This document shows positions 1-51,792 of a stretch of 64,000 bases of DNA, piece by piece. This DNA is from Candidatus Mailhella excrementigallinarum. Its GTDB lineage: Bacteria > Desulfobacterota > Desulfovibrionia > Desulfovibrionales > Desulfovibrionaceae. Below the pieces are notes generated by a model. The model saw nothing but the letters and a program-made list of their open reading frames with translations, searched no databases and had not been told where the DNA came from. The stretch covers positions 157,743-221,742 of the forward strand of contig CALUUZ010000003.1 of assembly GCA_944324075.1 (NCBI GenBank), in the 5' to 3' direction. The translations under genes and the position numbers were made by a program. Within the stretch, counting starts at the first letter, position 1. Each line of letters begins with the position of its first letter.

Positions 1-1
1 G

Positions 2-2008: not shown

Positions 2009-2040
2009 ACGGCCCCCGATCGCCATGGACCGGGGGCCGT
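2009..2040 (+). terminator. Hairpin after the activase
   Basis: Perfect 10-bp inverted repeat, ACGGCCCCCG and CGGGGGCCGT, with a 12-nt loop, a few bases after the activase stop codon. The following T-run is weak (cgtattt). It sits between two convergent genes and may serve both. Confidence 0.6.
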
Positions 2041-2098
2041 CGTATTTCCGGGAAAATGCGGCTGAAGACTTGCGGCAGCCGCAGGGCCGTTTCAGACG

Positions 2099-3325
2099 TC
2101 ATGCGTCCTGCATGCGTCTGTACCTGCGCAGGATGTCGCGCAGGCGATCCAGCGGAAGGGCGTGGGCCACGCGCCCCCTGATGCCCCTTGTGGTCGTCGC
2201 CATGCACAGGGCATTGACAATGGCCTCATGCGTGGCCTCCACCGTGGCGGTGAACAGGGGGTTCATCCGCGCATGGTTCAGCGTCTCCACGCTGAACCGC
2301 TCCCCGGAATTGTCAAGCCTGTTTGCAGTGGAAAAGGCGACAAAGATATCGCCCGAGCCGTCGGCGGCTGTGCTTCCCGTGATGCCCACGCCCAGCCCGG
2401 CGCGTCGGGCGAGCCGCTTGCACTGGTCGGCCAGCAGGGGCGCGTCGGTAGCCACGACGACAATGATGGAGCCATCCCCCTGATACGGCCTGACCGGTTC
2501 CGTGGGATTGTCGCGTCCCGGCACTTCCGAAACGGGAATCTCCTGCCCTACCGGCGCTCCGGCAATGGTCAGTTCGGGCCGGCGGCCGTAATTGGCCTGT
2601 ACCAGAACGCCCACCGCATATCCCCCCTCCTCTTTGGGAAGAACGCGCGAACTTGTGCCGATGCCGCCCTTGAACTCATGGCAGCACATGCCCGTTCCGC
2701 CGCCCACGCAGCCCTCGGCAACCGGCCCTGCCGCCGCGCTGTCCAGCGCGGCGACCACATGCTCCGGCCGGACATGGAACCCGTTGATATCGGAAAGAAA
2801 GCCGTCCCATGTTTCCGCCACGACCGGCAGCATCCAGTCCAGCGCTCCGGGGTACTTGCGACAGTAGTAGTCGATGACCGTGTCGCGCACCACGCCCACG
2901 CTGTGCGTATTGGTCAGCATGATGGGGGAGCCGAGCAGCCCGGACTCCTCCACCCACCATGACCCGGTCATCTCTCCGTTGCCGTTCAGGCTGTGCATGC
3001 CGGCATAAAGAGGATGATTAATGACGTCATCGCAGGGAATGATGGCGGAAACGCCGGTACGCGCGATGCCGCTCACGGGGCCGGGGCCGTCCTTGATCAC
3101 GGTGGCGTGCCCTACCCTGACGCCCGCCACGTCGGTAATGGCATTGTATTTTCCGCACGGATAGCGGCCGATGCTCAGCCCCAGTTCCCTCGCGCGCATG
3201 CGCTTTCCCGGAATGATGGGCGCGGAAGCGGCTTCCGCGGCAGCCGCCGGAGCGGCGGAAACAGCGGAAAGGGCGCCAAGCGCGGCGACAGCCACGGAGC
3301 CTTTGATGAAATCTCTGCGGATCAT
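2099..3325 (-). CDS. P1-family (DmpA-like) aminopeptidase, Tat-exported
   Basis: 408 residues. P1-family proteins (L-aminopeptidase D-Ala-esterase/amidase, Ntn-hydrolase fold) cleave themselves into two chains and hydrolyse N-terminal amino acids or amides. The N-terminus, M-I-R-R-D-F-I-K-G plus a hydrophobic alanine-rich stretch ending in AAAAEA, is a twin-arginine signal, so the enzyme should act in the periplasm. The family core is visible as GGGTGM..., FKGGIGTSSR (self-cleavage region) and QANYGRRPELTIAG. The start at 3325 has AGGAGG upstream; the longer frame lacks this. It is the last gene of a dctP-dctQM-peptidase operon, so it may process a peptide- or amide-like substrate before or after TRAP uptake. 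That link is inference. Confidence 0.88.
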   Translation of the reverse strand: MIRRDFIKGSVAVAALGALSAVSAAPAAAAEAASAPIIPGKRMRARELGLSIGRYPCGKYNAITDVAGVRVGHATVIKDGPGPVSGIARTGVSAIIPCDDVINHPLYAGMHSLNGNGEMTGSWWVEESGLLGSPIMLTNTHSVGVVRDTVIDYYCRKYPGALDWMLPVVAETWDGFLSDINGFHVRPEHVVAALDSAAAGPVAEGCVGGGTGMCCHEFKGGIGTSSRVLPKEEGGYAVGVLVQANYGRRPELTIAGAPVGQEIPVSEVPGRDNPTEPVRPYQGDGSIIVVVATDAPLLADQCKRLARRAGLGVGITGSTAADGSGDIFVAFSTANRLDNSGERFSVETLNHARMNPLFTATVEATHEAIVNALCMATTTRGIRGRVAHALPLDRLRDILRRYRRMQDA

Positions 3326-3363
3326 GCTTCCTCCTGAATGTTCTGAAAATATTTCGGATATGT

Positions 3364-3402
3364 CAGTCCCGCGCGGCGGCATCATGCCGCCGCGTCGGAC
3401 TG
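3364..3402 (-). other. Strong intercistronic hairpin between dctQM and the peptidase gene
   Basis: CGCGGCGGCA-tca-TGCCGCCGCG (3372-3394), with outer arms CAGTCC/GGACTG. There is no T-run on the minus strand, so it looks more like an mRNA-stability or processing stem than a terminator. Confidence 0.6.
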
Positions 3403-3433
3403 ATGGGAAACCCCGCTTTGCGGCGTTTGCGCC

Positions 3434-5275
3434 CTACATGCTCCGGGTCAGGAGCAGGCTGATTTCGGGGAACACGATGACCGCCACCAGCACCACGAGC
3501 AGCACGCCCAGCATGGGCAGAACCTCACGGCTCATGGCCCCCAGACTGCATCCGCTGACGCTGCTCGCCACGAACAGGTTCGGGCCGACCGGGGGCGTCA
3601 CGAAGGCGATGGCCAGGTTCAGGGTCATGATCACCCCGAAATGAATGGGGTCCACCCCGAGCGACACCATGATCGGCACCAGAATGGGCGTGAGAATGAT
3701 GGTGGCCGGGGCCGGCTCCATGAAGGTTCCGATGAACAGCAGGAACAGGTTGATGATGATCAGCACCACCCACTTGTTTTCGGAGAAGCCGAGCATGATG
3801 TGCGCCACCTGCTGGGGAATGGACTCGATGGCCACCACAAAGCCGAAAATACCGGCCATGGCCTGAAGCATGATGACCACCGCGCTGGTGACGCAGCAGT
3901 CCACCATGATGGAAACGAAATTGGACCGATTAATCCCCTTGTACACAAATATGCCCACCAGCAGACCGTAGGCCGCGGCTATGGCGGCGGATTCCGTGGG
4001 GGTCATCACTCCCCCGTAAATGCCGCCGAGAATGATCACGGGAACCATGAGGCCCCATTTGGCGTTGTTGACGGCCTTCAGCAGACGTGGCAGGCTGAAC
4101 CTGCGGTCTTCCCCCTTCCAGCCGCGCTTCCGGCAGTAGAAATAGCTGTAGACCATGAGCGCGCCTCCGGTGAGTATGCCCGGCAGAACGCCCGCCATGA
4201 ACAGCTTGCCGATGGATACCTTGGCCAGCACCCCGTAGACGATGAAGGGGTTGCTCGGCGGGATGAGCACGCCGATGATCCCCGCGCAGGCCACGATGGT
4301 GGCGGAAAACACCTTGCCGTATCCGCGCTCCACCATGGCCGGAATGCTCATCATGCCGATGGCGGCCACGGTGGCCGGGCCGGAACCGCTGATGGCGGCG
4401 AAGAACATGCAGGTCAGAATGGTGGCCATGGCCATGCCGCCGTACATGCCGCCCACAACCTCGTCCGCCAGTTCGAAAAGCTGACGGCTGATTCCTCCCA
4501 CGCCCATCATGATCCCCGACGCGATGAAAAAGAATATGGCGAGAAAGGGGAAGGAGTTGAGCGAGGAATAGGCGACCTGGGCCACGTTCCCCCACGGCAG
4601 ATCCCCGGAACAGGCAATGGCCGCAAGCCCCGACAGGGCAAGGCAGACCGCGATGGGAATGCCCAGCAGAAGAAACACGACCAGGCTCAGCATGAGCACG
4701 GCTATGGTGCTTGCATCCACCCGGAGGATCATGGGCGCGGCCAGCACCGCCAGAACGGCGAACCCGATCAGCGAATCCTTCGCGCCGCACACGCGGATCT
4801 GACGGACAAGATTCTGGATCAGGCGCACCGCCATCAGTCCGAAGCTGACGGGCAGCGAGAGATAGCAGATATAATAGGGCAGACGCAGGGCGGTCGTGAG
4901 CTGGGGAAAGCGCATCTGCATGGCGATGGTCTGACAGGAAAGAACGATAATCACCAGCGCCAGCACAAGGAACGCGCCCTCGTTGATGATCCAGAAGATG
5001 TTCTGCCCCCGTTCGCCAAAACGGCTGACCAGAGCATTCACGGAAAGGTTTTCCCGCTTCCTGATTGCAATGGGCACGGCCAGATATGACGACCAGATAA
5101 AGCACATGAGGGAAAGCTCTTCAGCCCAGGCGGTATTGCCCTCCATGCCGAAGATATCGGAAAAGACATAACGGAACAGCACCTGCCATGTAATGAGGGT
5201 GATGGAAACCAGCAGACCGACGATCAGAAAGGGTTTTTCGAAATTCTCATCCAGCCAGTGAAGAAATGCGCGCAT
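3434..5275 (-). CDS. TRAP transporter fused small and large permease (DctQM)
   Basis: 613 residues, an inner-membrane permease of a tripartite ATP-independent periplasmic transporter. Roughly the first 170 residues are the four-helix DctQ module (MRAFLHWLDENFEKPFLIVG, with the Q-module WAEELS motif). A linker helix leads into the ~430-residue DctM module, which has repeated long hydrophobic helices and family signatures such as GSGPATVAAIG and IPPSNPFIVYG. Fused QM proteins are common for C4-acid and sulfonate TRAP systems. The start at 5275 removes a basic non-conserved extension. It lies just downstream of dctP on the same strand and shares its predicted sigma-54 promoter. Confidence 0.92.
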   Translation of the reverse strand: MRAFLHWLDENFEKPFLIVGLLVSITLITWQVLFRYVFSDIFGMEGNTAWAEELSLMCFIWSSYLAVPIAIRKRENLSVNALVSRFGERGQNIFWIINEGAFLVLALVIIVLSCQTIAMQMRFPQLTTALRLPYYICYLSLPVSFGLMAVRLIQNLVRQIRVCGAKDSLIGFAVLAVLAAPMILRVDASTIAVLMLSLVVFLLLGIPIAVCLALSGLAAIACSGDLPWGNVAQVAYSSLNSFPFLAIFFFIASGIMMGVGGISRQLFELADEVVGGMYGGMAMATILTCMFFAAISGSGPATVAAIGMMSIPAMVERGYGKVFSATIVACAGIIGVLIPPSNPFIVYGVLAKVSIGKLFMAGVLPGILTGGALMVYSYFYCRKRGWKGEDRRFSLPRLLKAVNNAKWGLMVPVIILGGIYGGVMTPTESAAIAAAYGLLVGIFVYKGINRSNFVSIMVDCCVTSAVVIMLQAMAGIFGFVVAIESIPQQVAHIMLGFSENKWVVLIIINLFLLFIGTFMEPAPATIILTPILVPIMVSLGVDPIHFGVIMTLNLAIAFVTPPVGPNLFVASSVSGCSLGAMSREVLPMLGVLLVVLVAVIVFPEISLLLTRSM

Positions 5276-5409
5276 GAAGACCTCGCAGCGAAAGCGCGTG
5301 CCGCGCCTGTGGAGTTTGCGGGCGGGCCGCCCGGAGAGGAAACGGCCTGCCCGCGTCAGGAGCATGTTGCGTCCATGTGTATCCGCCGGGTATGTACGCC
5401 GGGCGGAGT

Positions 5410-6414
5410 CTATTTCTGGGTTGCCGTCAGCAGGGAATAGAATGTGGGGTCGATCTGCGGCACAAAGCTGTCATATACGGGCTTTACCGCCTCAAGGAAG
5501 GCGGCGCGGGTTTCCGCCGGGAAGGGATGGATGGTCATCCTGTTCTGTTCGCTGTATTTCAGGCCGTCGGCGTCCATCCTGTCCACCAGTTCCTGACCGA
5601 AGGCGCAGGCTTCGGAGGCGGCTTTCCTCAGGGCGGCCTGAACATCGGAAGGCAGGGAGTCCCAGTAGGATTTGCTGATCACGCCGACCATGCAGGTGAA
5701 GCTGTGGGAGGTGGGCAGGGTATAGTGCAGCACGTCGCCGCGGCGGCTTGTGTAGTAGTCCGCAAGGCTGAGCAGCTCGCCGTCGATGGTTCCCTGCTGG
5801 AGCGCGGTGTAGATTTCCGCGAAGCCCATGGGGGCGGGAATCATTTTCAGGGTTTCGGCCAGCATGTTGTCCACGGGGGAAGCCGTGGTGCGCATCTTGA
5901 CACCCTTCAGGGAAGGCAGATCGGGAATGGGGCGCTTGTTGGTCATGTAATGACGGTTGGGGCAGTCCGCGTACACCAGCGCCATCAGGTTCACCTTGGC
6001 CAGCTGTTCGTTCATGTAGCGGCCCAGCTCGCCCTCGTTGAGTTCCCTGTACAGAGCTTCCTTCTTCGCGGGATCGATGATGAAGGGAAGATCAAAGGCC
6101 ATGGCCGAGGGCCAGAAGATGCCCAGATTGGACGTTCCGCAGCCGCCCATCTGGAGGTCGCCGCGCTGGGCGGATTCGGTTACTTCGCGGTCGCCGCCGA
6201 GTACGGCGCTTTCATACATCTTTACGGCGACCTTGCCGCCGGAATGGGCGGAGGCCAGTTCCCCGAACTTTCTGAAGGTCTGGGAATACACGGCGTCCGG
6301 GGCGCCGTCGTGCGCGAAGCGGATGTTGTGTTCAGCGGCTGACGCGGGGCAGGGAGCCGTGCCCAGCATCAGCGCCAGGAGAGAGAGAGAGAGAGAGAGA
6401 GAGAATTTTGCCAT
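5410..6414 (-). CDS. TRAP transporter substrate-binding protein DctP (with TC repeat in signal peptide)
   Basis: 334 residues; a secreted periplasmic solute receptor that delivers substrate to the downstream DctQM. The signal peptide is followed by mature HNIRFAHDGAPDAVYSQ, and the family core (KMRTTASPVDNML, FAEIYTALQQGTIDGE) is present. In this core a conserved Arg normally binds the carboxylate or sulfonate of the ligand. The start at 6414 has AGAGG upstream. The hydrophobic core of the signal peptide is written as Ser-Leu repeats encoded by 13 TC dinucleotides (6379-6404). Gain or loss of one unit would shift the frame and abolish the protein. It is divergent from the sigma-54 activator. 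Confidence 0.93.
   Translation of the reverse strand: MAKFSLSLSLSLLALMLGTAPCPASAAEHNIRFAHDGAPDAVYSQTFRKFGELASAHSGGKVAVKMYESAVLGGDREVTESAQRGDLQMGGCGTSNLGIFWPSAMAFDLPFIIDPAKKEALYRELNEGELGRYMNEQLAKVNLMALVYADCPNRHYMTNKRPIPDLPSLKGVKMRTTASPVDNMLAETLKMIPAPMGFAEIYTALQQGTIDGELLSLADYYTSRRGDVLHYTLPTSHSFTCMVGVISKSYWDSLPSDVQAALRKAASEACAFGQELVDRMDADGLKYSEQNRMTIHPFPAETRAAFLEAVKPVYDSFVPQIDPTFYSLLTATQK
6379..6404. repeat. (GA)13 / (TC)13 dinucleotide tract inside dctP
   Basis: Thirteen perfect GA units on the plus strand, read as TC on the coding strand, directly after codon 4 of dctP. Such tracts are prone to slipped-strand mispairing. The current length keeps dctP open. Confidence 0.97.
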
Positions 6415-6486
6415 GGCCGAACCTCTGCTGTTGAAGGTTGTCATCCGGCGCGGCCCGGTTTGCGCCGCGCCGATGCAGAGGCAAAA

Positions 6487-6501
6487 GCAATCTTCATGCC
6501 A
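6487..6501 (-). promoter_or_regulatory. Sigma-54 (-24/-12) promoter for the dctP operon
   Basis: On the minus strand: TGGCAT, 5 nt, TTGC, matching the RpoN consensus TGGCAY-N5-TTGC. It is about 73 bp upstream of the dctP start. The divergent neighbour encodes a sigma-54 enhancer-binding protein, which fits. Confidence 0.75.
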
Positions 6502-6820
6502 AAAATCACATATCGCATATCATGGGAAAATAATATATTTTTATCGAGAACAAGAGCAGGGCTCGTCCTCCTTTTCAGGACACTTATGTCCTTTTTCAAT
6601 ACATTATACCCTTGACAATGTATTGATTCAGGTCATAACAAAACATCCTGTCTTTACGGGGACCGCAAATGTGAAATACGCCGCACAGCCCCCCTGAGGC
6701 CCGCTGATGTATTCCGCGAATAAATCAGCTCCATGCCAAAGAGGCAAAATCCTCTTTGAAAAATGTACGCCAACCCGTTAATTTTACAAGAAAAGCAAGT
6801 TTTTCTCTCACGACTTGCGG

Positions 6821-6894: not shown

Positions 6895-8805
6895 GTGACG
6901 TATCAGACCACAGCGCATGGGAACCAGCCCCCGCGGGAAGAAGATGAGGCAAGGCTCCGCGTCGTGAAGCCGGAGCTTCCTGAAGGCTGGCGGAAAAGCC
7001 TGACCGCCCGCGCCGCGGGATGCGGTTCCGAAGACGCCCTGCCTCCGTCCGGGCTGAACACTGTTCTCGAGGCGAATCACGAAGTCCTGCAGGCGGCCGT
7101 CCCGATCATGAAGGAATATGAGGAATGCTTCATGCGGGAGCGCGGGCTGCTGGCCCTGCTCTCTCCCGACGGGGTTCTCCTGCACGGGACGGGAGACGCG
7201 GCGCTGGCGGAATCCGCGGGATTCCGCCCCGGAACCGTTCTGCCCGGAACGGTTCGGCCCGAAGCAGTTTCGGAGAAAGGCCGCGGGGAAGACGCCTCCG
7301 CCCGCTGGGGCTGCTGGATCGAACCCCTGCGCGGCGGCAAGCGCCGGATAATGGGCTTTCTTGCCCTGCTCCTCCCCCGCGCGGCCTGCCACGCCGCAAC
7401 GCCCGCCCTGCTCCATGCCATTGCCGCCAACATCAACAATCAGCATCATGTCCATGATCTGTTGAGCGATCAGTCCGCAGTGCTTGAGCTGCTGACGGAC
7501 GGCGTTGTCATTCTTGACCGGAGGGGAGGCATCAAGGCGGCCAACGCCCACGCCCGGCGCATGCTGGATATTCCGGGAGAAGAAAACACCTCCCTCGGCC
7601 CGATTTCCGACTTCGTGCGGGACGGCGCGCCCTTCATGCAGATTCTCGGGCAGAAGCGGACTGTCATGGACGAGGAGGCCACGCTCCGCGTCGGGAACGC
7701 GCAGAAACGCTATATCCTTTCCGCGTCGTTCATACCGGAGGACAAGGGAGTGGTCTGCACTCTGGCCGAAACCGCCCGGATGCAGAAGTTCGCCGTGCGC
7801 ACGGCCGGCTCGAAGGCGATCTACAGGTTCTCCGACATTCTGGGGGAATCGGACGTCATCGTCAACGCGGTGCAGCTTGCCCGGGTGGCCGCGCAAAGCG
7901 ACATCACCACCCTGCTCCTCGGAGAGAGCGGCACGGGCAAGGAACTGTTCGCCCATGCCATCCACAACGGCAGCGCCAGAAAGAGCGGCCCCTTCGTCGT
8001 GGTCAACTGCGGGGCGCTGCCGCGCGATCTCGTGCAGTCGGAACTGTTCGGCTACGAAGCCGGAGCCTTTACCGGGGCTGCAAAAAACGGCAAGCCCGGC
8101 AAATTCGAGCTGGCGGACGGGGGAACCATCTTTCTGGACGAAATCGGAGAAATGCCCATGGAGGCCCAGACCAACCTTCTGCGTCTCATTCAGAACAAGG
8201 AGGTCGCGCGCGTGGGCGGCACGACCACCAAAAGCGTGGACGTGCGCATTGTGGCCGCCACAAACCGGAATCTGAGCGAGGCCGTGGCGCGCGGCACCTT
8301 CCGCTCCGATCTCTTTTACCGCCTCAGCGTGCTGGTCATCAACATCCCGGCCCTGCGCAGCCGCTCTTCCGACATCGCCGCTCTGGCCGCCCACTTTCTG
8401 CGCAAGTACGCCTCGGCCCTGAACCGTCCCATCACGGGATTCGCTCCGGAAGCTCTTCAGGCCCTGCGGCACTATTCCTGGCCCGGCAATATCCGCGAGC
8501 TGGAAAACATCATCGAACGGGCGGTGAATGTGGCCAAAAGCTCTCTCATCGCCGCTTCCGATCTGCCGGATTTCCTGTCGCTGCGACAGGAAATCCCGCG
8601 CGAAGACCAATCCTCTCCCGAAGATGCCTATACGGGAGACAATTTGTATATGCAGGAATGCCGGGCCATCATCAATACCCTGAGCCGCTGCAACGGCAAT
8701 ATCCGCCTCGCCGCGCAGGAACTCGGCATCGCGCGCAGCGCCCTGTACGGCAAGCTGACGCGCTTCGGCATCGATTACGCGAAGTTCCGGAACAGATACA
8801 GGTAG
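6895..8805 (+). CDS. Sigma-54-dependent enhancer-binding regulator
   Basis: 636 residues starting at GTG (AGGAGG eight bases upstream). An N-terminal sensory part (about 1-200) is followed by a PAS-like domain (LTDGVVILDRRGGIKAANAH), which probably reads a small ligand. The AAA+ domain has Walker A GESGTGKE near residue 343 and the sigma-54-contacting GAFTGA at 390-395. The C-terminal Fis-type helix-turn-helix begins around NIRLAAQELGIARSALY. There is no receiver domain, so it is not phosphorelay-driven. It lies between, and likely controls, the TRAP operon (divergent, sigma-54 promoter) and the GRE2 operon (convergent). The architecture resembles activators of other glycyl-radical degradation clusters. 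Confidence 0.92.
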   Translation: MTYQTTAHGNQPPREEDEARLRVVKPELPEGWRKSLTARAAGCGSEDALPPSGLNTVLEANHEVLQAAVPIMKEYEECFMRERGLLALLSPDGVLLHGTGDAALAESAGFRPGTVLPGTVRPEAVSEKGRGEDASARWGCWIEPLRGGKRRIMGFLALLLPRAACHAATPALLHAIAANINNQHHVHDLLSDQSAVLELLTDGVVILDRRGGIKAANAHARRMLDIPGEENTSLGPISDFVRDGAPFMQILGQKRTVMDEEATLRVGNAQKRYILSASFIPEDKGVVCTLAETARMQKFAVRTAGSKAIYRFSDILGESDVIVNAVQLARVAAQSDITTLLLGESGTGKELFAHAIHNGSARKSGPFVVVNCGALPRDLVQSELFGYEAGAFTGAAKNGKPGKFELADGGTIFLDEIGEMPMEAQTNLLRLIQNKEVARVGGTTTKSVDVRIVAATNRNLSEAVARGTFRSDLFYRLSVLVINIPALRSRSSDIAALAAHFLRKYASALNRPITGFAPEALQALRHYSWPGNIRELENIIERAVNVAKSSLIAASDLPDFLSLRQEIPREDQSSPEDAYTGDNLYMQECRAIINTLSRCNGNIRLAAQELGIARSALYGKLTRFGIDYAKFRNRYR

Positions 8806-8840: not shown

Positions 8841-9752
8841 TCAACGCGTGAACGCGGCCAGCCTGTCCCGCAGCCTTTTCATGAACGGTTCGTCCGCCGT
8901 GACCTCACCCATGAGCCAGGGGCGGCCGATATAGCCGTATTTCGGCATGCCCAGGCGGTGATAGGTCAGAACCTCATATCTGACCGTGGGGCGATCCGGC
9001 AGCATGCGGCGTATGCCCATGATTTCCTCCTCGCTGTCGTTGAAGCCGGGAATGACCGGCGTGCGGACAAGCACGGGCAGGTCGGGAAAATGGGCAAGAA
9101 CATGGTTGAGATTCTTCAGAATCTGTTCGTTGCCGTGGCCCGTATATTCCCTGTGTCTGGCCGGATCGAGGCTCTTGACGTCAAAAATGAGGGAACTCAG
9201 CAGCCGGCAGGCCTGATCCAGAACTTCCGTGGGGTACTGCCCGCAGCTTTCGATGGTCGTATGCAGGCGGGCCTTCCTTGCCTCGCGCAGAAGCGCGAGA
9301 GTGAAATCGGGCTGCGCGAGCGGTTCGCCGCCGGAGATGGTCAGGCCGCCGCCGGATCGGGTATAGAACACGTCATCCTCTTCCACCCTTTTCATGATGT
9401 CGGCAACGCTGCGCTCTTCCCCGTAATATGACTGCGCCCCGGTGGGGCAGCGGCGCACGCAGCCGCCGCAGTCCGTACATTTTGCGCGATCATAGCGGAT
9501 AAGCCCGTCTTCCGTCAGGGTCAGGCCGCCGGTCGCGCAGGCTTCGACGCAGCGTCCGCAGACCGAAGCGCCAAGGCAGCGGTTGGGGTTGAAGGCGCGT
9601 TCGGGCCGGAACTGCTGCGATTCGGGGTTGCTGCACCAGCGGCAGCGCAGCGGACATCCCTTGAGAAACACCACCGTGCGGATGCCGTCGCCGTCATGAA
9701 CGCTGAACCTCTGTACGTTGAAAACAATACCCTTGCGGTCTCTGTCCTGCAT
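8841..9752 (-). CDS. Glycyl-radical enzyme activase (radical SAM) for GRE2
   Basis: 303 residues. It has the activase signature SVHDGDGIRT, the radical-SAM motif C-P-L-R-C-R-W-C and two ferredoxin-like clusters (CGRCVEACATGG; CTDCGGCVRRCPTG). SGGEPLAQPDF and the C-terminal YEVLTYHRLGMPKYGYIGRP follow. AAAGGAG precedes the ATG. It is the last gene of the minus-strand run GRE2, amidohydrolase, MATE, activase, so it most likely charges GRE2. It is paralogous to the activase at 1074-2000, but the two are clearly diverged. Confidence 0.93.
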   Translation of the reverse strand: MQDRDRKGIVFNVQRFSVHDGDGIRTVVFLKGCPLRCRWCSNPESQQFRPERAFNPNRCLGASVCGRCVEACATGGLTLTEDGLIRYDRAKCTDCGGCVRRCPTGAQSYYGEERSVADIMKRVEEDDVFYTRSGGGLTISGGEPLAQPDFTLALLREARKARLHTTIESCGQYPTEVLDQACRLLSSLIFDVKSLDPARHREYTGHGNEQILKNLNHVLAHFPDLPVLVRTPVIPGFNDSEEEIMGIRRMLPDRPTVRYEVLTYHRLGMPKYGYIGRPWLMGEVTADEPFMKRLRDRLAAFTR

Positions 9753-9782: not shown

Positions 9783-11144
9783 TCAAATTTCCGATGAAGA
9801 AGGCCGGGGCGAGAGCTTTTTCTTCACATAATGGACAAAATACACGGTGCTGGCGAGCGAGGCGATGATGTCGCTCACGGGTTCCGCCGCAATGACGGCG
9901 CAAACCCTGTCTTCCGCGAAACCGGGGAGAATGTAGATCAGCGGAATGAGCAGCATGCCCTTGCGGAAGAAGGCGAAGAACAGGGAGAGCTTGCCGTCGC
10001 CCAGAGCGTTGTAGCTGTCCTGGCTCACGATGGTCATGCCCAGGAAAAAGCAGCCGCAGATATACAGCCGGAGCATGGGCGCGGCCTGTTCGACAAGCGC
10101 CTGATCCGGCGTGAACAGGCTCACGAAAAAACGCGGAAACGCCACCAGCAGGCATGTGCAGATCAGCGAATACAGCAGCGTGGCCTTACCGGCCAGCCAT
10201 ATGGTTTCCTTCACGCGGCCGTAGTCGCCCGATCCGTAGTTGAAGCTGACTATGGGCTGCGCCCCCTGATAGATGCCGATCATCGGCAGCAGGACAAGCT
10301 GGAATATCGAAGCCAGAATGGCCATGGCGCCCACCGCGATATCCCCGCCGAAACGCGCGAGCTGAGTGTTGAAGCTGAGCAGAAGAATCCCCTCGGTGGA
10401 AATCATGAACGCCGGGGAAGAGCCGAGAATCACGATGCGCCGCACAAGATCCCCGCGCGGCGGCAGGAAGCGCGGCCGCACGCGGAGCAGCGCCAGCGGT
10501 CCGCGGTAGAAACGCACCACCCAGAGAAAGGAAACGAACTGGGCGATGACCGTGGCAATGGCCGCTCCCCGGATGCCCATGTCCAGCGCGAAAATGAAAA
10601 CCGGGTCGAGAACGATGTTGACCACCCCGCCGATCAGGGGCGTCATCATGCCGATTCTGGTAAAGCCCTGCGTATTGATGAAATAGTTCAGGCCCAGACT
10701 GGTCTGAAAGAAAAAGGTGCCGAGGCTGTAAATGCGCAGATAATCCTCGGCATAGGGAAGCGTCGCCTCGCTTGCGCCGAACAGCAGAAGCAGCGGCTCG
10801 CAGAAAATCTGAATCCCGGCCGTGATCAGAAGTGATGAGGCCAGCAGCAGGAACAGGCTGTTCGACATGATGTGATCGGCCTCGTCCTGATCATTCGCGC
10901 CCATGCTGATGCCGCTGAGCGGAGCGCCGCCTCTCCCGAACAGGCTGGTCACGGCCAGAATGATGGTCACGATGGGCATGCACACGCCTATGGCGGTCAT
11001 GGCGGCCGCGCCGTCGTCCATGTGCCCGATATAGATGCGATCCACCATATTGTAGCACAGGGTAATAAGCTGGGCCAGCATGGCGGGAACGGCCAGCGAC
11101 AGAAGAAGACCCGGAATTCTGCCTACGGCCAGCCTGTTCTCCAT
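9783..11144 (-). CDS. MATE-family efflux transporter
   Basis: 453 residues, about 12 membrane helices in two similar halves, typical of the multidrug and toxic compound extrusion family (Na+ or H+ antiporters). The family pattern is visible in SLAVPAMLAQLITLCYNMVD near the N-terminus and GGVVNIVLDPVFIF in the middle. AAGGAGG precedes the ATG. It lies between the amidohydrolase and the activase in the GRE2 operon. It may export a product or toxic by-product of the GRE2 pathway; that role is inferred only from position. Confidence 0.92.
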   Translation of the reverse strand: MENRLAVGRIPGLLLSLAVPAMLAQLITLCYNMVDRIYIGHMDDGAAAMTAIGVCMPIVTIILAVTSLFGRGGAPLSGISMGANDQDEADHIMSNSLFLLLASSLLITAGIQIFCEPLLLLFGASEATLPYAEDYLRIYSLGTFFFQTSLGLNYFINTQGFTRIGMMTPLIGGVVNIVLDPVFIFALDMGIRGAAIATVIAQFVSFLWVVRFYRGPLALLRVRPRFLPPRGDLVRRIVILGSSPAFMISTEGILLLSFNTQLARFGGDIAVGAMAILASIFQLVLLPMIGIYQGAQPIVSFNYGSGDYGRVKETIWLAGKATLLYSLICTCLLVAFPRFFVSLFTPDQALVEQAAPMLRLYICGCFFLGMTIVSQDSYNALGDGKLSLFFAFFRKGMLLIPLIYILPGFAEDRVCAVIAAEPVSDIIASLASTVYFVHYVKKKLSPRPSSSEI

Positions 11145-12268: not shown

Positions 12269-14770
12269 TCAGACCGACTGCTGTTCCGTGCGGTCGATGA
12301 GGTCGTTCTGGAGGTCGGTGTTCAGATCCACGAAGTAGGCGCTGTATCCGGCGATGCGCACCACCAGGTTGCGGTACTTGTGCGGGTCCTTCTGCGCCGC
12401 GATCATGGTTTCGCGGTTGATGACGTTGATCTGCAGATGCCACACGCGCAGGTCGATGAAGCTGCGGAACAGATCCACCAGCTTCTGCGTGCCCTCGTCG
12501 CCCTCCACCGTCTTGGGAGCTATCTTCATGTTCAGCAGGCGGCAGGCGCGGTTGGGCGCATTCCAGTTTGTGCTCTTGTACTGGGAAAGCAGCACGGCAG
12601 TGGGACCGCTCATGTCGGAGCCGTGCGAGGGCGAACTGCCGTCGGACAACGGGGTCCACGCCTTGCGGCCGTTGGGCATGGCGCTCACGAACTTGCCGTG
12701 GGGCACGTTGGCCGTCACGGACGTGGTGCGGATTTCAATGGGCTGCACGCCGTAGTTTTTGGCATAGTGCGCGGTGAAGTCCAGCGCGCTCTTTTCCACC
12801 TGCTTGTACAGGTTGTCCGCGTAGTCGTCGCCGTTGCCGAAGCGCGGCGCGCGCTGGAGCATGGCCTGCAGGGCTTCCTTGCCCTCGAAGTCGCAGTCCA
12901 GAGCTTCCAGCAGCTCCTGCATGGTGAGGGAGCCTTCCTCAAACACCAGCTTCTTGATGACGGAAAGCGAGTCCACCAGCGTCCCGAATCCGATAGCGTC
13001 GAAGAAGGCCAGATCCAGCGCGCCTTCGGGGGCCTGATCGCTGTTCAGGTCGACGCAGGATTCCACGCACAGGTTGTGCAGGCCGGAGGCCAGCGGGCTG
13101 GCGAAGTACTTGGCGCGGGTATGATGGATGGTGTCCTGCAGCACAAAGGCCGTGGTGATCAGATTGTTCTGCTGGGCCACATAGGCATCCCAGAATTCTT
13201 CCCAGGTCTTGAAGGAGCAGGGATCGCCGCTTTCAAAGGTGAACACCCCGTCGCCGAACTTCTTCAGACGGCCGTTGCGCAGCGTGAGTTCGAGAGCGGC
13301 GCAGAGGTTCACCTGCGTGCCGGGGCTCATGTAGCTTTCGCGGTTGATCAGACGGGTTTCGTTGCAGCCGCTCACCACATAGTCGTACACTTCGCTGACC
13401 GGAGCGCCCTTGGCCAGCATGCGGGGAATAAGTTCCTCGTCGTTGACCAGCTTGGGATAGCCCTGCCCCTGCTTGATGGTTTCCGCGATATCCCAGAGGT
13501 ACCGCTTGGGCGAACGGGTATGCACGCGCACGGCCAGGTCGGGATAATGGGTAGGAAACTCGCGCTTGGAGCGCAGCAGCAGATAGGTCAGTTCGTTGGT
13601 GGCGTCCTGACCGTCGGGAGTCTGCCCGCCGATGGTCACGGCTTCCCAGTGGGCGAAACCGGCCTGGGTGTCCATGACCCCGGGAGAAAGAGGCAGCTCG
13701 ATGAACTGCGCCATCTGGCACCACATGCAGCCGAGAATTTCCAGGGCCTTCTTTTCCGTCAGCACGCCGGACTCCATGTCCTTGCGGTAGTAGGAAATGA
13801 GCTGCTGATCCATGCGGCCGTTGGAAATAATGCAGCCGGTGCGCTGTTCCAGGCGGGAGAACGCCTGCGCGAACCAGTGGGCCTGCACGGCCTCATGGAA
13901 GGTGCGAGCAGGATTCTCCGGCACCCATTCGCAGCGTTCCGCAATTTCCAGAAGTTCCTGACGGCGCGCGGGGTCCTTTTCCACGGCGGCCTTTTCCCTG
14001 GCCAGCTCGGCATGGCGGCGCGCCCAGACCACCACGGCGTCGCAGGTGAGCATCACCGCTTCCAGGAAGGGAATGCGGTTCACGATATTGTACGGATCCT
14101 TCTGATCCAGAGCCTCAAGACGACGCCTGGCATTTTCCTTCACTCCCTTGAAACCGAGCTTCAGCACCTTGTCGAAGTCCAGAACCCACTGGAGACTGGA
14201 ACGCAGGGAGGAGGATTCCGCCACCACATAGCGGGGCTGAAGCCCTTCCTTGTCGCCGTAAGCCATGCGCTTGCAGCGTTCGGGCATCCTCTTGAACAGC
14301 TCGTGATGGTAGGTCTTGCCGTTCCAGTATGCGCCGATCTCGTTGACGATGACGTCGATGTCCTCATCCATGACGCGGATGGGGGGATTCTCGCGGGTGG
14401 CGAAATCGTCCAGAACGCTCTTGTAGAAATCCCCGTCCAGTTCGGGATACAGAATGCCGTAGCGGCAGTTGTCCCGGCCGAGACGTCCCACAATGAGCTG
14501 GGTATCCTCAATATAGACAGGCATTTTCTGCGCGACATTCATCAGCGCCTTCGCCCAGCGGAGTGTCAGATGCTGTCCCTCGGTTTCCCGCATGGACTCG
14601 GTGAAATACCTGGCGCGCTCCACGTCGATGACGGGAGGAGTGCAGTCAAACGATTCAAGCATGTCGATGACGCGGGGCTGCTCGGCACGGAACGGACTGG
14701 GCTTGCCCTTCGCGGCGTCCTCAATCCATTGCTCCTGCGGAGTACAGCAACAACAACCCATATCGAGCAT
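12269..14770 (-). CDS. Glycyl-radical enzyme GRE2, IslA-like (candidate sulfonate lyase)
   Basis: 833 residues. GAGGAG precedes the ATG at 14770; a longer frame exists but this start gives the family's usual length. Visible catalytic elements are Cys469 and Glu471 (SGCNE thiyl-radical loop) and Gly808 in RIAGYSAYF. Arg190, Gln194, Trp375 and Arg681 occupy the positions, within 1-3 residues, that I recall as R189, Q193, W374 and R678 in isethionate sulfite-lyase, whose C468, E470 and G805 match too. The recalled F682 is Val685 here. This points to a relative that breaks a C-S bond (or removes water) from a hydroxy-sulfonate, perhaps bulkier than isethionate. It heads an operon with an amidohydrolase-like protein, MATE exporter and activase. 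The substrate is unproven. Confidence 0.9.
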   Translation of the reverse strand: MLDMGCCCCTPQEQWIEDAAKGKPSPFRAEQPRVIDMLESFDCTPPVIDVERARYFTESMRETEGQHLTLRWAKALMNVAQKMPVYIEDTQLIVGRLGRDNCRYGILYPELDGDFYKSVLDDFATRENPPIRVMDEDIDVIVNEIGAYWNGKTYHHELFKRMPERCKRMAYGDKEGLQPRYVVAESSSLRSSLQWVLDFDKVLKLGFKGVKENARRRLEALDQKDPYNIVNRIPFLEAVMLTCDAVVVWARRHAELAREKAAVEKDPARRQELLEIAERCEWVPENPARTFHEAVQAHWFAQAFSRLEQRTGCIISNGRMDQQLISYYRKDMESGVLTEKKALEILGCMWCQMAQFIELPLSPGVMDTQAGFAHWEAVTIGGQTPDGQDATNELTYLLLRSKREFPTHYPDLAVRVHTRSPKRYLWDIAETIKQGQGYPKLVNDEELIPRMLAKGAPVSEVYDYVVSGCNETRLINRESYMSPGTQVNLCAALELTLRNGRLKKFGDGVFTFESGDPCSFKTWEEFWDAYVAQQNNLITTAFVLQDTIHHTRAKYFASPLASGLHNLCVESCVDLNSDQAPEGALDLAFFDAIGFGTLVDSLSVIKKLVFEEGSLTMQELLEALDCDFEGKEALQAMLQRAPRFGNGDDYADNLYKQVEKSALDFTAHYAKNYGVQPIEIRTTSVTANVPHGKFVSAMPNGRKAWTPLSDGSSPSHGSDMSGPTAVLLSQYKSTNWNAPNRACRLLNMKIAPKTVEGDEGTQKLVDLFRSFIDLRVWHLQINVINRETMIAAQKDPHKYRNLVVRIAGYSAYFVDLNTDLQNDLIDRTEQQSV

Positions 14771-14814: not shown

Positions 14815-14829
14815 TCATAAACTGTGCCA
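14815..14829 (-). promoter_or_regulatory. Tentative sigma-54-like promoter for GRE2
   Basis: On the minus strand TGGCAC is a perfect -24 element, but the -12 element at 5-nt spacing reads ATGA rather than TTGC. It is about 45 bp upstream of the GRE2 start. Confidence 0.3.
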
Positions 14830-14907: not shown

Positions 14908-14947
14908 ATGTTCTTTATCAGTACATGTATGTCCTGATAAAGAACAT
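14908..14947. promoter_or_regulatory. 40-bp palindrome upstream of GRE2
   Basis: ATGTTCTTTATCA, 14 nt, TGATAAAGAACAT: perfect 13-bp arms, AT-rich in a GC-rich genome, about 140 bp upstream of the GRE2 start. No T-run follows on either strand. The distance suits an enhancer site for the sigma-54 activator; another regulator is possible. The remaining gap up to 15101 holds nothing else recognisable. Confidence 0.6.
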
Positions 14948-15101: not shown

Positions 15102-16217
15102 ATGCGCACCTTCCTTTTTCTCCCGCCCCTTCCGCGCATGAGCGGAGGGCTGGCCGTACTCGTGAACATGGGCGCGGAACTGGCCGAAGCGGGCCATGCC
15201 GTCTTTTTCGTTCTGCGCGAAAGGCCGGAGAATATACCATGGCGTTCCGCCCTGCCTGCCTCCGTGCCGCTTCTGATCTGGCGGGGGAACGAACTTGAGC
15301 ACACCGTTCCGGACAGACGCCCTCCCGCCCTGCGGCCGGAGGACATCTGGCTTCTGCCCGAAGGCTGGCCGCTTGCCCTGCTTCCCGGCCTGCGGGCAGG
15401 GGCGAGAGTGGTGCTGTATGTGCAGAACTGGGCCTATCTGCTCGCGGAACTGCCCGACGGACTGAAACTGCCCGCCCTGCCCGTCCGCTATCTTGCCGTA
15501 TCCCGCCCTGTGGCATGGCATGTGCGGGACATGACGGGCAAAACGGCGGAACTCCTGCGCCCCGGCATCGACCGCGCGTTCTTCCGCCCGTCGGGCTCCT
15601 CCCCTTCCGAAGCGGAAAACGAAGATGAAGCGGAGCTTCCCCGCATCGCCTGGATGCCGCGCAAGAACAGCGCGATGGCCCGGCAGATCCGCGCCATCAC
15701 CGACGCGCGCATCATCCGCCGGGGCGGAACCCCTCCCCAGTGGCTGGAAATACGAGACAGGTCACGCGAGGAAGTGGCCGCCCTTCTGCGCAGCGCGGAT
15801 ATCTTTCTTGCCACGGGTTTTCCCGAAGGATGCCCCCTTCCCCCGCTGGAAGCCATGGCTTCGGGCTGCGTGGTGACAGGGTTCAGCGGTTTCGGGGGAT
15901 GGGACTACATGCGCTCGCCGGTGGAGCTGCACGCAGGCAGGGCACGGGGCGACACTCCGGCATGGCTGCCCCAGCCGCTGCGCAGCGAACTGCGCGGCGA
16001 CGAGCGCCCGGGAAACGGCCTGTGGGCGGCGGACGGCGATGTCATCGGCGCATCCTTCGCGCTTGATAAAACCCTTGCGCTGTGGGAAGAACAGGGCGAC
16101 GGGTGGGACGCCCTGCTCGGCGGCGCGGCGGACACCGCCGCTCTGTATGACCTTTCCGCACACCGCGCCGCGCTCCTTGCTCTGTGGGCACGGGCGGCTG
16201 GCTCCGACTGTTTCTGA
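15102..16217 (+). CDS. Glycosyltransferase-like protein (GT4 fold)
   Basis: 371 residues. It begins with MRTFLFLPPLPRMSGGLAVL, a GT-B N-terminal pattern with a donor-side glycine-rich loop. The C-terminal half contains ADIFLATGFPEGCPLPPLEA and MASGCVVTGFSGFGGWDY, the GT4 E-x7-E-type region that binds the nucleotide sugar. It probably adds a sugar to a surface glycan in the cytoplasm. GGAGG precedes the ATG at 15102; a longer open frame reaches back into the GRE2 control region and is not coding. It stands alone, not in a glycan cluster. Confidence 0.82.
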   Translation: MRTFLFLPPLPRMSGGLAVLVNMGAELAEAGHAVFFVLRERPENIPWRSALPASVPLLIWRGNELEHTVPDRRPPALRPEDIWLLPEGWPLALLPGLRAGARVVLYVQNWAYLLAELPDGLKLPALPVRYLAVSRPVAWHVRDMTGKTAELLRPGIDRAFFRPSGSSPSEAENEDEAELPRIAWMPRKNSAMARQIRAITDARIIRRGGTPPQWLEIRDRSREEVAALLRSADIFLATGFPEGCPLPPLEAMASGCVVTGFSGFGGWDYMRSPVELHAGRARGDTPAWLPQPLRSELRGDERPGNGLWAADGDVIGASFALDKTLALWEEQGDGWDALLGGAADTAALYDLSAHRAALLALWARAAGSDCF

Positions 16218-16319
16218 AGCATATCCGCGCAGCCTGGCGAAGCCGGAAGAGAGAGGCCGCAATTCTGCCCGGCCCCGGACATTTCATCAAGAATTTCCTT
16301 ATGTTTTGAAACCTCCACC

Positions 16320-16445
16320 CCTTCAGGGGGAAAAGCTCTGTTGACAAAAGGGCAAAGCCGGTGAAATTCTTTGCCTTCCCCCCTCCCGTCAGGGAGGAGC
16401 AATCCGCACGCCCCCTGTCCGTCGGCCGCTTCAGTCCGTCGGCGG
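16320..16445 (-). repeat. Dispersed repeat family B, copy 1
   Basis: Read on the minus strand, it has a GGACTGA region, then AGGGGGCGTGCGGA, CTCCCTGA, TTCACCGGCTTTGCCCTTTT and GTCAA. The same order of blocks occurs on the plus strand at 41895-42000. It fills most of the 265-bp gap between the glycosyltransferase and tatD-like genes. Confidence 0.6.
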
Positions 16446-16482
16446 ATGAGGCGACTGTGGACTGAAACATAGCGGAGTACAC

Positions 16483-17349
16483 ATGTCATCAGCAAAACAT
16501 GCAAAGGAACGCGCAAGGGAGGCCGGGAAGGAACGCCCTCTGCCGGAAAGCCTTTCCCTGCCCCGCGTCGGGGCCGACAGCCATGCCCATCTTGACTCCG
16601 ACCAGCTGTGGCCGGAGTTCGAGTCCGTACTGGAAAGAGCCGCCCGCGCCGGGCTTTCCCATATCGGGCAGGTTTTTCTCCGTCATTCGGCGTATCTCGA
16701 CAGGCGGGAACTCATGGGAAAGCCCCGCCCCGGCCTGCCGGAGCTTTTTTTTCTGCTCGGCATCCACCCCTGCGACGGCCTGACCGTCACTGAGGAGGAA
16801 TGGCCTGCCATTGAAGAAGATTTCCGGCACGACGACCGCCTGCGCGCGGTGGGGGAAATCGGCCTCGATTTCTACTGGAAGGAGTGCCCCCGCGACGTGC
16901 AGGAAAGGATTTTCCGCCTTCAACTGCGTATCGCGGCGCGGCTGGATCGCCCCGTGGTCATACATTCCCGCGACGCCTTTGCCGATACGCTGCGGGTGCT
17001 GGACGACGAGGGTTTCGCCGGGCGGCCGCTGCTCTGGCACTGCTTCGGCGGAGACGAGGACGCCGCCAGGGCGCTTCTGAACCGCGGCTGGCACATTTCC
17101 CTGCCCGGCCCCGTGACCTATCCCGCCAACAGCGCGCTGCGCGACGCGGTACGTATCATCCCCGGCGATCGACTGCTGGTGGAAACCGACTGTCCCTATC
17201 TCGCTCCTGTACCCTGGCGGGGCAGGCGAAACGAACCCGCCCTCTGCGCCTTTACCGCCGCGGCGGTGGCCGAAGTCCGGGGCGAGGCCGCGGACGAGCT
17301 GTGGGCAAGGTGCGGAGACAACGCCCGGCGCTTTTTCGGAATCGCCTGA
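16483..17349 (+). CDS. TatD-family metal-dependent DNase
   Basis: 288 residues. TatD proteins are TIM-barrel metal-dependent hydrolases that act as 3'-5' exonucleases on DNA, or as D-aminoacyl-tRNA deacylase-like enzymes. The metal site is visible as DSHAHLD near residue 33, GEIGLDFYW, VVIHSRDA, WHCFGG and VETDCPYLAPVP. A basic ~25-residue N-terminal extension precedes the usual start. It is a single gene with no operon partner. Cytoplasmic housekeeping or repair is likely; the exact substrate is not shown by sequence. Confidence 0.9.
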   Translation: MSSAKHAKERAREAGKERPLPESLSLPRVGADSHAHLDSDQLWPEFESVLERAARAGLSHIGQVFLRHSAYLDRRELMGKPRPGLPELFFLLGIHPCDGLTVTEEEWPAIEEDFRHDDRLRAVGEIGLDFYWKECPRDVQERIFRLQLRIAARLDRPVVIHSRDAFADTLRVLDDEGFAGRPLLWHCFGGDEDAARALLNRGWHISLPGPVTYPANSALRDAVRIIPGDRLLVETDCPYLAPVPWRGRRNEPALCAFTAAAVAEVRGEAADELWARCGDNARRFFGIA

Positions 17350-17548
17350 CCGCCGTTCGCCGGCTTTCCCTGCGGGGAACGGAAAACCGGATAGTCCGGC
17401 CGGAAATATTTTCTCTTATCTGTCCCTATAGATTTGCCGGCTTTTTCCGAAAGGAAAAATATGGATATATGAACGCAACCGCTCCGACGCCGGAGCGTGT
17501 CCGGTTTCGGGGCTGACGCTCCAGTCCGGTCAACTCACGGAGGTTTTT

Positions 17549-17737
17549 ATGACTCTTGGCGGAACCAGTCTGATGGCCCCGGCCCAGGCGGCCATGGGGG
17601 CGCTGCAAAGCGCTCTGGATACTCAGGCCAGTCTTGTGGGCCAGTTGCTCAACGGCGGAGCCCTGAATACGGAGGGCATGATAAATGCCGCACTGGCGGA
17701 AGCCGGAAAAGGCACAAAGCTGAATCTGACGGTCTAG
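17549..17737 (+). CDS. YjfB-like putative motility protein
   Basis: 62 residues, with GGAGG before the ATG. The middle reads ALQSALDTQASLVGQLLNGG, close to the small YjfB/putative-motility family (short proteins of unknown action, often in flagellated bacteria). No flagellar gene is next to it. The stop codon TAG overlaps the beginning of a family A repeat (TCTAGAGCG). The upstream 200 bp hold no other gene. Confidence 0.6.
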   Translation: MTLGGTSLMAPAQAAMGALQSALDTQASLVGQLLNGGALNTEGMINAALAEAGKGTKLNLTV

Positions 17738-17919
17738 AGCGTTTTGCTGTTGAAAACAGCTGCCAGCAAGGCCCCCATGCTCTGACCCGCAGGGTTCACA
17801 CCCGAAGCCGGAGCTATATGCCGCAAGAGAATTGCAGCGACACCGGAGGAGGGACGGCGCGGCGGAGTCCCGCATCGCCCCGCCCGACTCCGGGAGCATT
17901 TTCAAACCGAAAATGCTCC
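17736..17919 (+). repeat. Dispersed repeat family A, copy 2
   Basis: Starts at the stop codon of the YjfB-like gene with AGAGCGTTTTGCTGTTGAAAA. It contains GCCGCAAGAGAATTGCAGC and ends with the palindrome GAGCATTTTC-aaacc-GAAAATGCTC. Confidence 0.75.
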
Positions 17920-18111
17920 AGTACCGTATAAGAGTGGATGCATCGCATTCAATGACAAGAGCGCTTCGTCGAAAACGCGGTTTCGGCTTGTTCACGATGG
18001 TAATCCGTTACGCGGAACCATGATCTGTTTCTTCCGCGGCACAACTGTCCCGAGGAAATGCAGCCTGCGCCGGGCGGAGCATGATGTTCCGCCCGGCGAT
18101 TATTTTTTTAA

Positions 18112-18420
18112 GGCTCTGTCATGGAACCGTGTTGACGGCGTTGCGCGGGGTACATCGTTTTACTTCGGCACAGGCGACAATATTCATTGCCACAAAGCAG
18201 CCCGTTTCCACACGGGCGAAAGACAGCATGTATCCACGGCTGGCTCGCTTGATCCTTTGTGCGGCGAAGCCGCACAAAGGATCCGCTCCGCGAGATATTG
18301 CTTCCGCTCCTCGCCCCCTCCATGCCGCATTGCCATGCGGCGGGAAGTGTCGTTCCATAGCTTGCCGCGTTCGCGCCTCCGGCGGTCAATGATATGTTCA
18401 GCACTATTCCATGACAGAGC
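18112..18420. mobile_element. MITE with terminal inverted repeats and 8-bp target duplication
   Basis: 309 bp. The left end GCTCTGTCATGGAA and right end TTCCATGACAGAGC are exact inverted repeats. Both flanks carry TTTTTTAA (18104-18111 and 18421-18428), an 8-bp target duplication. There is no transposase gene. Inside is a perfect hairpin, GATCCTTTGTGCGGC-gaa-GCCGCACAAAGGATC (18251-18283). The end sequence and 8-bp duplication recall IS6-type elements (GGCTCTGT...), so it may be mobilised by such a transposase elsewhere. The right half resembles 42010-42125. It fills most of the gap before the GGDEF gene. Confidence 0.8.
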
Positions 18421-18479
18421 TTTTTTAATTATAATGAAGTATTCATGTTCCAGCCATAAAAGCATATGCTCTTTCCCCT

Positions 18480-32711: not shown

Positions 32712-32840
32712 CTCTGCTCTCCCTATCCGCAAGGCGCGCCTGCGGCCAGGGACGCTGCTTCGTCTTCCGGCGAAAAGTCCGCCGGGGCGGCATGCGAACA
32801 CCGTGCAGAGTCCTGCTCTCAGCAGACGACAGAAGCCCCG

Positions 32841-50600: not shown

Positions 50601-50694
50601 GGAACCTCCTCAAAATGCCGGAAGGCGGGGGGCGGATTCCGGCGTGCCGAAGGGCGGCCGTCTCCGGGCGGCCGCCCGTTCAATCGCATATGCG

Positions 50695-51729: not shown

Positions 51730-51792
51730 GTGACCTCCTCGGTGATGCTTGGGCGGGGAGCCGCAAGGCCCCCCCTTGTTTTCGTCGCGCGG

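What the first reader, a model, noticed from the sequence alone, without database searches (positions are those of the whole stretch)
12269..14770. IslA-like glycyl-radical enzyme with altered pocket
Visible: Arg190, Gln194, Trp375, Cys469, Glu471, Arg681, Gly808. From memory of the published isethionate sulfite-lyase structure, the sulfonate ligands are R189, Q193, W374 and R678 with C468/E470/G805, so nearly all line up with a 1-3 residue offset. The recalled F682 is Val685 here, which should enlarge the pocket. Inference: a sulfonate C-S lyase or sulfonate dehydratase for a bulkier substrate, feeding sulfite respiration. The operon partners (amidohydrolase-like, MATE) are unlike those I know for isethionate or DHPS pathways.
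Basis: partly seen in the sequence, partly recalled or inferred. Interest (0 to 1): 0.85.

Follow-up and report, generated by a model that had tools for sequence, protein, structure and literature searches.

The report
New-clade radical sulfonate lyase
A bacterial gene cluster encodes a glycyl-radical enzyme that keeps the sulfonate-gripping residues of isethionate sulfite-lyase but forms its own branch with changed pocket residues, and it likely frees sulfite from a bulkier, still unidentified sulfonate to feed respiration that would make hydrogen sulfide.

Summary
The 833-aa glycyl-radical enzyme (GRE2, 12269-14770, minus strand) keeps the catalytic and sulfonate-contact residues of IslA (R190, Q194, R681, W375, C469, E471, G808). 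All three residues that pack against isethionate are changed (F to V685, I to L193, T to C313), and the essential V680 is T683. In a careful tree it is a separate clade (100/100); joining it to IslA or HpsG is rejected (AU p 0.0002 and 0.0007). NCBI's "(2S)-3-sulfopropanediol dehydratase" model does not discriminate: all five family paralogs in this genome pass it, the IslA-clade copy scoring highest. The cluster's TRAP receptor is closest to isethionate-binding IseP: the paired arginines and the hydroxyl-binding Asp stay, other ligands become small or hydrophobic, while 15 receptor rows beside IslA or IslA-like GREs keep all 12 IseP positions. The GRE2 and TRAP operons share a palindrome seen nowhere else in the window at 3 mismatches, a likely activator site. 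This genome has dsrA and no aprA over cut-off. Best reading: a sulfite-lyase for a bulkier hydroxysulfonate, neither isethionate nor DHPS; substrate unknown. The "unfamiliar" amidohydrolase is a regular neighbour of the family and has lost its metal ligands.

The parts
12269..14770 (-). GRE2, glycyl-radical enzyme, 833 aa
11318..12145 (-). FRFRP-type amidohydrolase-fold protein lacking the usual metal ligands (start set by orthologs at MKFIDFRFRP; the ORF runs on to GTG 12226)
9783..11144 (-). MATE-family transporter, likely product exporter
   Evidence: same position in G138 and G178, DHA2-like MFS in G214
8841..9752 (-). radical-SAM GRE activase (NF048010 458.6 bits over cut-off 430)
6895..8805 (+). 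sigma-54-dependent activator (PAS, AAA+, Fis-type HTH)
5410..6444 (-). TRAP substrate-binding protein, nearest solved relative IseP, altered ligand positions
3434..5365 (-). TRAP DctQM fused permease
2099..3385 (-). S58 (DmpA/BapA-like) hydrolase with a Tat-like leader (PF10518 21.2 bits, just under its cut-off 22.7); also in G138, not in the G178 and G214 stretches searched
14930..14946 (.). palindromic upstream element, GRE2 operon
6619..6635 (.). palindromic upstream element, TRAP operon
6487..6501 (-). -24/-12 (sigma-54) promoter-like TGGCATGAAGATTGC, TRAP operon
   Evidence: 1 mismatch
14815..14829 (-). weak -24/-12-like TGGCACAGTTTATGA, GRE2 operon
   Evidence: 2 mismatches; a 2-mismatch site upstream of GRE2 in 5 of 5 loci, own included

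Best explanation
GRE2 is an IslA/HpsG-family glycyl-radical enzyme of its own clade that likely cleaves the C-S bond of a hydroxysulfonate larger and less polar than isethionate, releasing sulfite for dissimilatory sulfite reduction. Shown by sequence: intact radical and sulfonate-binding residues, altered packing residues, separate clade, TRAP receptor with anion and hydroxyl ligands kept and most others altered, shared upstream palindrome, dsrA present in the genome. Inferred: the TRAP transporter imports the sulfonate; the activase installs the glycyl radical on G808; the C469 thiyl radical abstracts H from the hydroxyl carbon; E471 deprotonates the OH; sulfite leaves and a carbonyl product remains. 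The sigma-54 activator co-induces both operons. The MATE pump probably exports the desulfonated product, so the sulfonate would serve mainly as electron acceptor. The substrate is unknown.
For: Residues: R190/Q194/R681 conserved, V685/L193/C313/T683 changed (contact roles from PMC8473560 and PMC6453916 passages). Tree: GRE2 clade 100/100, stem 0.6, outside IslA and HpsG; AU p 0.000178 and 0.000706 against union with IslA and HpsG. Fold: best PDB hits 7kq3 (TM 0.94), 5ymr, 6lon. Receptor: IseP best at 208 bits against 131 for the next; R164, R185, D85, N106 kept, N217->L, S95->G, Y153->C, S242->T, H244->M, while 15 listed rows (14 distinct genes) beside IslA or IslA-like GREs keep all 12 ligand positions. 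Regulon: palindrome at up to 3 mismatches hits only 6619-6635 and 14930-14946 in 64 kb, 0.06 expected. GRE2-amidohydrolase pair adjacent in 5 of 5 loci; GRE2-to-DctQM order kept in G138 and G178. Own genome: dsrA over cut-off, aprA not.
Against: No substrate, no assay. Active-site loops of the model have pLDDT under 50 (residues 364-373, 685-692, 807-810), so pocket size is inferred from residue swaps, not measured. In IslA V680A is inactive and F682A is about 50-fold less efficient (PMC8473560), so the swaps could also mean weaker or different chemistry. The palindrome pattern was drawn from the same promoters it was then counted on. NCBIfam calls the protein a DHPS enzyme. S58 and Fe-ADH are not constant partners, and G214 showed no SBP match near GRE2. 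dsrA is not found in 5 of 19 genus genomes, two of them at least 96% complete, though those have family GREs, so family GREs need not always feed DsrAB. Sat was not searched.
Confidence: 0.62

Rival explanations
1. GRE2 is a divergent isethionate or DHPS sulfite-lyase with the known substrate.
For: 51-55% identity to the solved IslA and HpsG chains; NF048011 1245.9 bits over cut-off 1000; fold top hits IslA and HpsG.
Against: AU tests reject clade union; own genome already has an IslA-clade gene whose receptor keeps 11 of 12 IseP positions (C22); receptor and GRE pocket residues both altered; NF048011 also matches the IslA-clade copy (1544.6) so it is not specific.
Confidence: 0.15
2. GRE2 is a sulfonate dehydratase (C-O cleavage, like HpfG) that leaves the C-S bond intact.
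For: GRE eliminases switch leaving groups readily (recalled); HpfG acts on DHPS to give 3-sulfopropionaldehyde (PMC11489063, abstract in the listing).
Against: Scores 446.2 bits on the HpfG model, cut-off 1000; it groups with the C-S-lyase family; own genome type fits sulfite respiration.
Confidence: 0.1
3. The anion is not a sulfonate but a phosphonate, phosphate ester or carboxylate of a hydroxy compound.
For: TRAP receptors use the same Arg pair for carboxylates and phosphates (PMC11668362 passages); N217, a sulfonate contact in IseP, is Leu here.
Against: The R189/Q193/R678 triad is reported as absent from other GREs (PMC6453916, PMC8473560 passages); nearest solved receptor is IseP.
Confidence: 0.13

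Closest known systems
Isethionate sulfite-lyase IslA/IseG (PDB 7kq3, 5ymr)
   Same: Fold (TM 0.94), Cys-x-Glu, Gly loop, Trp375, R/Q/R sulfonate triad, activase, TRAP transporter
   Different: Separate clade; F682->V, I192->L, T312->C, V680->T, I469->N; receptor ligands altered; efflux pump in operon
DHPS sulfite-lyase HpsG (PDB 6lon)
   Same: Family, triad, Cys-rich N-terminus; curated model NF048011 passes
   Different: RYVPI motif of HpsG is RTTSV here; separate clade; the two HpsG-linked receptors of this pattern found read P-E-Q-A-N-G-R-R-N-(L/M)-W-G (L096, L112)
Own-genome GRE1/C2-type paralogs (uncharacterised, L046, L047)
   Same: Sister group (92/90); RTVSV motif; GRE1-linked receptor also has Leu for N217
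   Different: 58% identity; V at the T683 position; C-A-E instead of C-N-E; C2's linked receptor does not share the pattern
IseP isethionate-binding TRAP receptor (8t9t)
   Same: Arg pair, Asp77, Arg78, Asn98, Ala40 kept in the window SBP
   Different: Ser95, Tyr153, Asn217, Asn240, Ser242 and His244 replaced

Membership tests
GRE eliminase | Cys-x-Glu loop and glycyl-radical loop | tested here: met
   C469-N-E471, R805-I-A-G808-Y; PF02901 and PF01228
IslA/HpsG sulfonate-lyase family | Arg189/Gln193/Arg678 triad and Trp374 | tested here: met
   R190, Q194, R681, W375 in 12 of 12 clean clade rows
IslA | groups with 5ymr and 7kq3 | tested here: not met
   AU p 0.000178
IslA | packing residues Phe682, Ile192, Thr312 | tested here: not met
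   V685, L193, C313
IslA | cleaves isethionate | not testable with these tools
   needs assay
HpsG | groups with 6lon | tested here: not met
   AU p 0.000706
HpsG | NF048011 over cut-off | tested here: inconclusive
   passes (1245.9) but so do all five own family paralogs including the IslA-clade one
HpfG DHPS dehydratase | NF048009 over cut-off | tested here: not met
   446.2 of 1000
Metal-dependent amidohydrolase (for the partner) | HxH, strand-5 His, strand-8 Asp | tested here: not met
   RxR, Thr, Ala in 5 of 5 GRE2-linked copies by alignment; strand positions recalled for the superfamily

The most novel reading that the evidence does not exclude
A strip-and-eject sulfonate respiration: a bulky, partly hydrophobic hydroxysulfonate, possibly freed from an amide or ester conjugate outside the cytoplasm by the Tat-exported S58 hydrolase, is imported by a re-tooled IseP-type TRAP system, desulfonated by a further class of sulfonate-lyase GRE, and its carbon part is pumped out by MATE or MFS. 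A metal-less FRFRP amidohydrolase-fold protein, with Arg-x-Arg where metal His-x-His should be, acts as an unrecognised anion-handling partner across the IslA/HpsG family.
Probability: 0.25. Interest if true: 0.82.

Novelty: new variant of a known kind. Interest (0 to 1): 0.62.

Why it matters
Only isethionate and DHPS are established substrates of this enzyme family as far as my paper searches and recall go, and IslA is a known route to gut H2S (PMC6386719, abstract in listing). One genus has up to seven family GREs of at least 50% identity to GRE2 in a genome (G138), and the six proteins I ran from two genomes all pass one substrate-specific model. The range of organosulfonates respired may thus be underestimated. 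Matching changes in enzyme and receptor make the substrate findable by ligand screening of one soluble protein.

Tried and rejected
Rows dropped before counts: P0013, P0014, P0016, P0017, P0018, and on reading P0012, P0019, P0022, P0023, P0024, join one paralog's front part to another's back part (P0023 and P0024 in three pieces) and look like metagenome assembly chimeras. P0015 (long branch), L088 and L089 and the 33-39% GREs were left out of the 40-row careful tree, as were other rows of the 94-row tree to shorten it.

The NCBIfam name was rejected as evidence of substrate. The metalloBSH link was rejected: that enzyme is Amidohydro_3, 101 kDa (PMC13081902 passages), not this PF04909 protein. 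AlphaFold pocket measurement was given up: loops under pLDDT 50. Sulfolactate and other substrates were considered and left open for lack of evidence. A sigma-54 consensus scan alone is not informative (49 hits, 82.6 expected); only position and orthologs give it weight. PNAS 2020 on HpsG was not held, so no HpsG contact residues are claimed. Sat (sulfate adenylyltransferase) was not searched.

Absence in print rests on the paper search in this library only.

Full report
What is there. Window 12269-14770 (-) encodes an intact 833-aa glycyl-radical enzyme, GRE2. Its best solved relatives are IslA from Desulfovibrio (5ymr, 1068 bits), IslA from Bilophila (7kq3, 1019) and HpsG (6lon, 997); the next is at 458. 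A model from 20 aligned sequences (pLDDT 81, pTM 0.87) has 7kq3 as top structural match (TM 0.94), then 5ymr and 6lon.

Residues. PMC8473560 (sections 9-11 and passages) gives Arg189, Gln193 and Arg678 as sulfonate ligands, Cys468/Glu470/Gly805 as catalytic, Trp374 near the Gly loop, Phe682 as packing; V680A was inactive. PMC6453916 (passages) adds van der Waals contacts of Phe680, Ile190 and Thr310 (Desulfovibrio numbers). In GRE2 the ligands and catalytic residues are kept; the three packing positions are V685, L193 and C313, and V680 is T683. In 12 of 12 clean clade rows R-T-T-S-V stands where the IslA rows have R-Y-V-P-F and the HpsG rows R-Y-V-P-I; C-N-E stands where the IslA rows have C-T-E, C-I-E or C-A-E and the HpsG rows C-T-E. 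Position 313 is Cys in 10 of 12 and Thr in 2.

Placement. A quick tree of 94 rows and a careful tree of 40 rows both put GRE2 in its own clade (100/100 in the latter; stem 0.6 changes per site), in the careful tree sister to two uncharacterised paralog types of the same genome (GRE1 and C2; 92/90), and outside the clades that hold 5ymr/7kq3 and 6lon. Several other uncharacterised clades exist in the family. Forcing GRE2 with IslA costs 79 log units (p-AU 0.000178) and with HpsG 61 (p-AU 0.000706). The groups were named after the first tree was seen, which weakens these p values somewhat. Among 288 family genomes searched, 5 carry the clade (G000, G138, G201, G178, G214; 81-100% identity, next 59%).

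Annotation caveat. NCBIfam NF048011, named (2S)-3-sulfopropanediol dehydratase, passes for all five family paralogs of this genome: 1544.6 for the IslA-clade copy, 1329.2, 1294.9 and 1281.6 for three others and 1245.9 for GRE2. The name therefore says little about GRE2's substrate.

Neighbourhood. On the minus strand GRE2 is followed by an amidohydrolase-fold gene, a MATE gene and the activase; further on lie a plus-strand sigma-54 activator and a minus-strand TRAP receptor, TRAP permease and S58 hydrolase. From GRE2 to the TRAP permease the same order recurs in G138 and G178 at 56-97% identity; G201 is cut by its contig end after the amidohydrolase; G214 keeps activator, GRE2, amidohydrolase and activase but has a DHA2-efflux-like MFS protein (148 bits, below its cut-off 230) between amidohydrolase and activase, and the front part of an aromatic-acid-symporter-like MFS protein (below cut-off) after the activase. 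GRE2 and the amidohydrolase are adjacent in 5 of 5. S58 is shared with G138 (87%); an iron alcohol dehydrogenase follows the TRAP genes directly in G178 and follows S58 in G138. Here none stands at that place; the closest own copy is 57% identical and on contig C22.

Regulation. Upstream regions of the GRE2 and TRAP operons in this genome and its relatives show TGTCCTGA-like palindromes (the G178 TRAP upstream stretch showed none by the pattern used). The consensus TGTCCTGAWTCAGGACA with up to 3 mismatches occurs twice in the window, 6619-6635 and 14930-14946, one before each operon; 0.06 expected, 1 of 100 shuffles reaches two. The pattern was read from these promoters, so the test is not independent. 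A -24/-12-like site with one mismatch precedes the TRAP operon, and 2-mismatch ones precede GRE2 in 5 of 5 loci. A single activator for both operons is inferred.

The receptor as independent witness. The TRAP receptor's best solved match is IseP (8t9t, 208 bits; next 131). PMC11668362 (passages) names Arg156, Arg177 and Asn217 for the sulfonate and Asp77, Ser95, Asn98 and His244 for the rest; the 11 residues I checked fall on the printed chain at offset 0. The window receptor keeps both Arg, Asp77, Arg78, Asn98 and Ala40 but has G, C, L, S, T, M for Ser95, Tyr153, Asn217, Asn240, Ser242 and His244. G138 reads the same; G178 differs from it at two positions (Ile for Asn98, Thr for position 153). 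As control, 15 rows beside IslA or IslA-like GREs (14 distinct genes) keep all 12 positions, and the own IslA-linked receptor keeps 11 with Phe for Tyr153. Of five receptors beside GRE1/C2-group GREs, four read A/S-D-R-A-I-T-R-R-L-N-P-H and C2's is unrelated in pattern. In the GRE2 clusters enzyme and receptor thus change together: anion and hydroxyl recognition stay, packing and polar closing residues go. This points to a larger, less polar hydroxysulfonate.

Physiology. dsrA is over its cut-off in 12 of 19 genomes of the genus including this one; 5 of 19 have no match at all, two of them at least 96% complete, and 2 have only sub-cut-off matches. aprA is over its cut-off in 0 of 19 (weak flavoprotein matches in 18; best 381 bits of 642 needed, in G151). 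dsrAB without aprAB is the state reported for Bilophila (PMC8667426 passage). All 19 genus genomes have at least one family GRE match at E <= 1e-150; G138 has seven of at least 50% identity and one at 36%.

The amidohydrolase. It is not: of 28 copies with at least 200 bits in the genus, 23 lie within 10 kb of a listed family GRE; of 6 weaker ones, none. The five strong exceptions have no listed GRE on their contig. It has FRFRP where metal-binding HxH is expected, Thr for the strand-5 His and Ala for the strand-8 Asp, keeping the strand-6 His. Its nearest structure is the uncharacterised BB4693 (3irs, 116 bits). Its role is unknown; two Arg in the metal position suggest anion handling, which is a guess.

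Verdict. The claim I make is a clade of sulfonate C-S lyases apart from the two characterised ones, with an unknown, bulkier substrate. Chemistry, substrate and export of the product remain untested.

Noticed in passing
L048:8823-11312 (own genome C6): A family GRE with C-A-S in place of the catalytic C-x-E, beside an IorA/IorB-like fused oxidoreductase (2040-4577) and genes that look like TctA/TctC (not run through a family library): possibly a different reaction.
   Followed up: partly
window 1-775 and L046:12026-14518: GRE1, a second family paralog 58% identical to GRE2, ends in the window; its TRAP receptor also has Leu for Asn217, and an HxH-type amidohydrolase lies about 8 kb away (L046:3475-4383).
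   Followed up: partly
L089:8971-11511 and L088:3088-5658: Family GREs in G115 with changed sulfonate-contact positions (SMNGCLQW loses the Arg; TQRGGTTW loses the Gln), so likely other substrates.
   Followed up: no
L083, L094, L098, L015: A family GRE lies near a second, more distant GRE (36-39% to GRE2) in the same locus.
   Followed up: no
L085:8992-11565 and 16127-18520: Two very similar HpsG-clade genes about 7 kb apart in G138.
   Followed up: no
P0012, P0013, P0014, P0016-P0019, P0022-P0024: Metagenomic proteins that look like assembly chimeras of paralogous GREs.
   Followed up: partly
window 29229-32801: Lambda-type tail tape-measure protein; the surrounding region looks like a prophage.
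   Followed up: no
window 48808-55449: A second TRAP permease and receptor with a fumarate-reductase-like flavoprotein and a pyridine-nucleotide oxidoreductase.
   Followed up: no
L128:9865 onward: The aromatic-acid-symporter-like MFS gene in G214 appears split between two frames.
   Followed up: no
L081:2831-5165 and L125:1833-5147 (G138): Upstream of GRE2 in G138 lie what look like microcompartment genes and another GRE/activase pair; not run through a family library.
   Followed up: no
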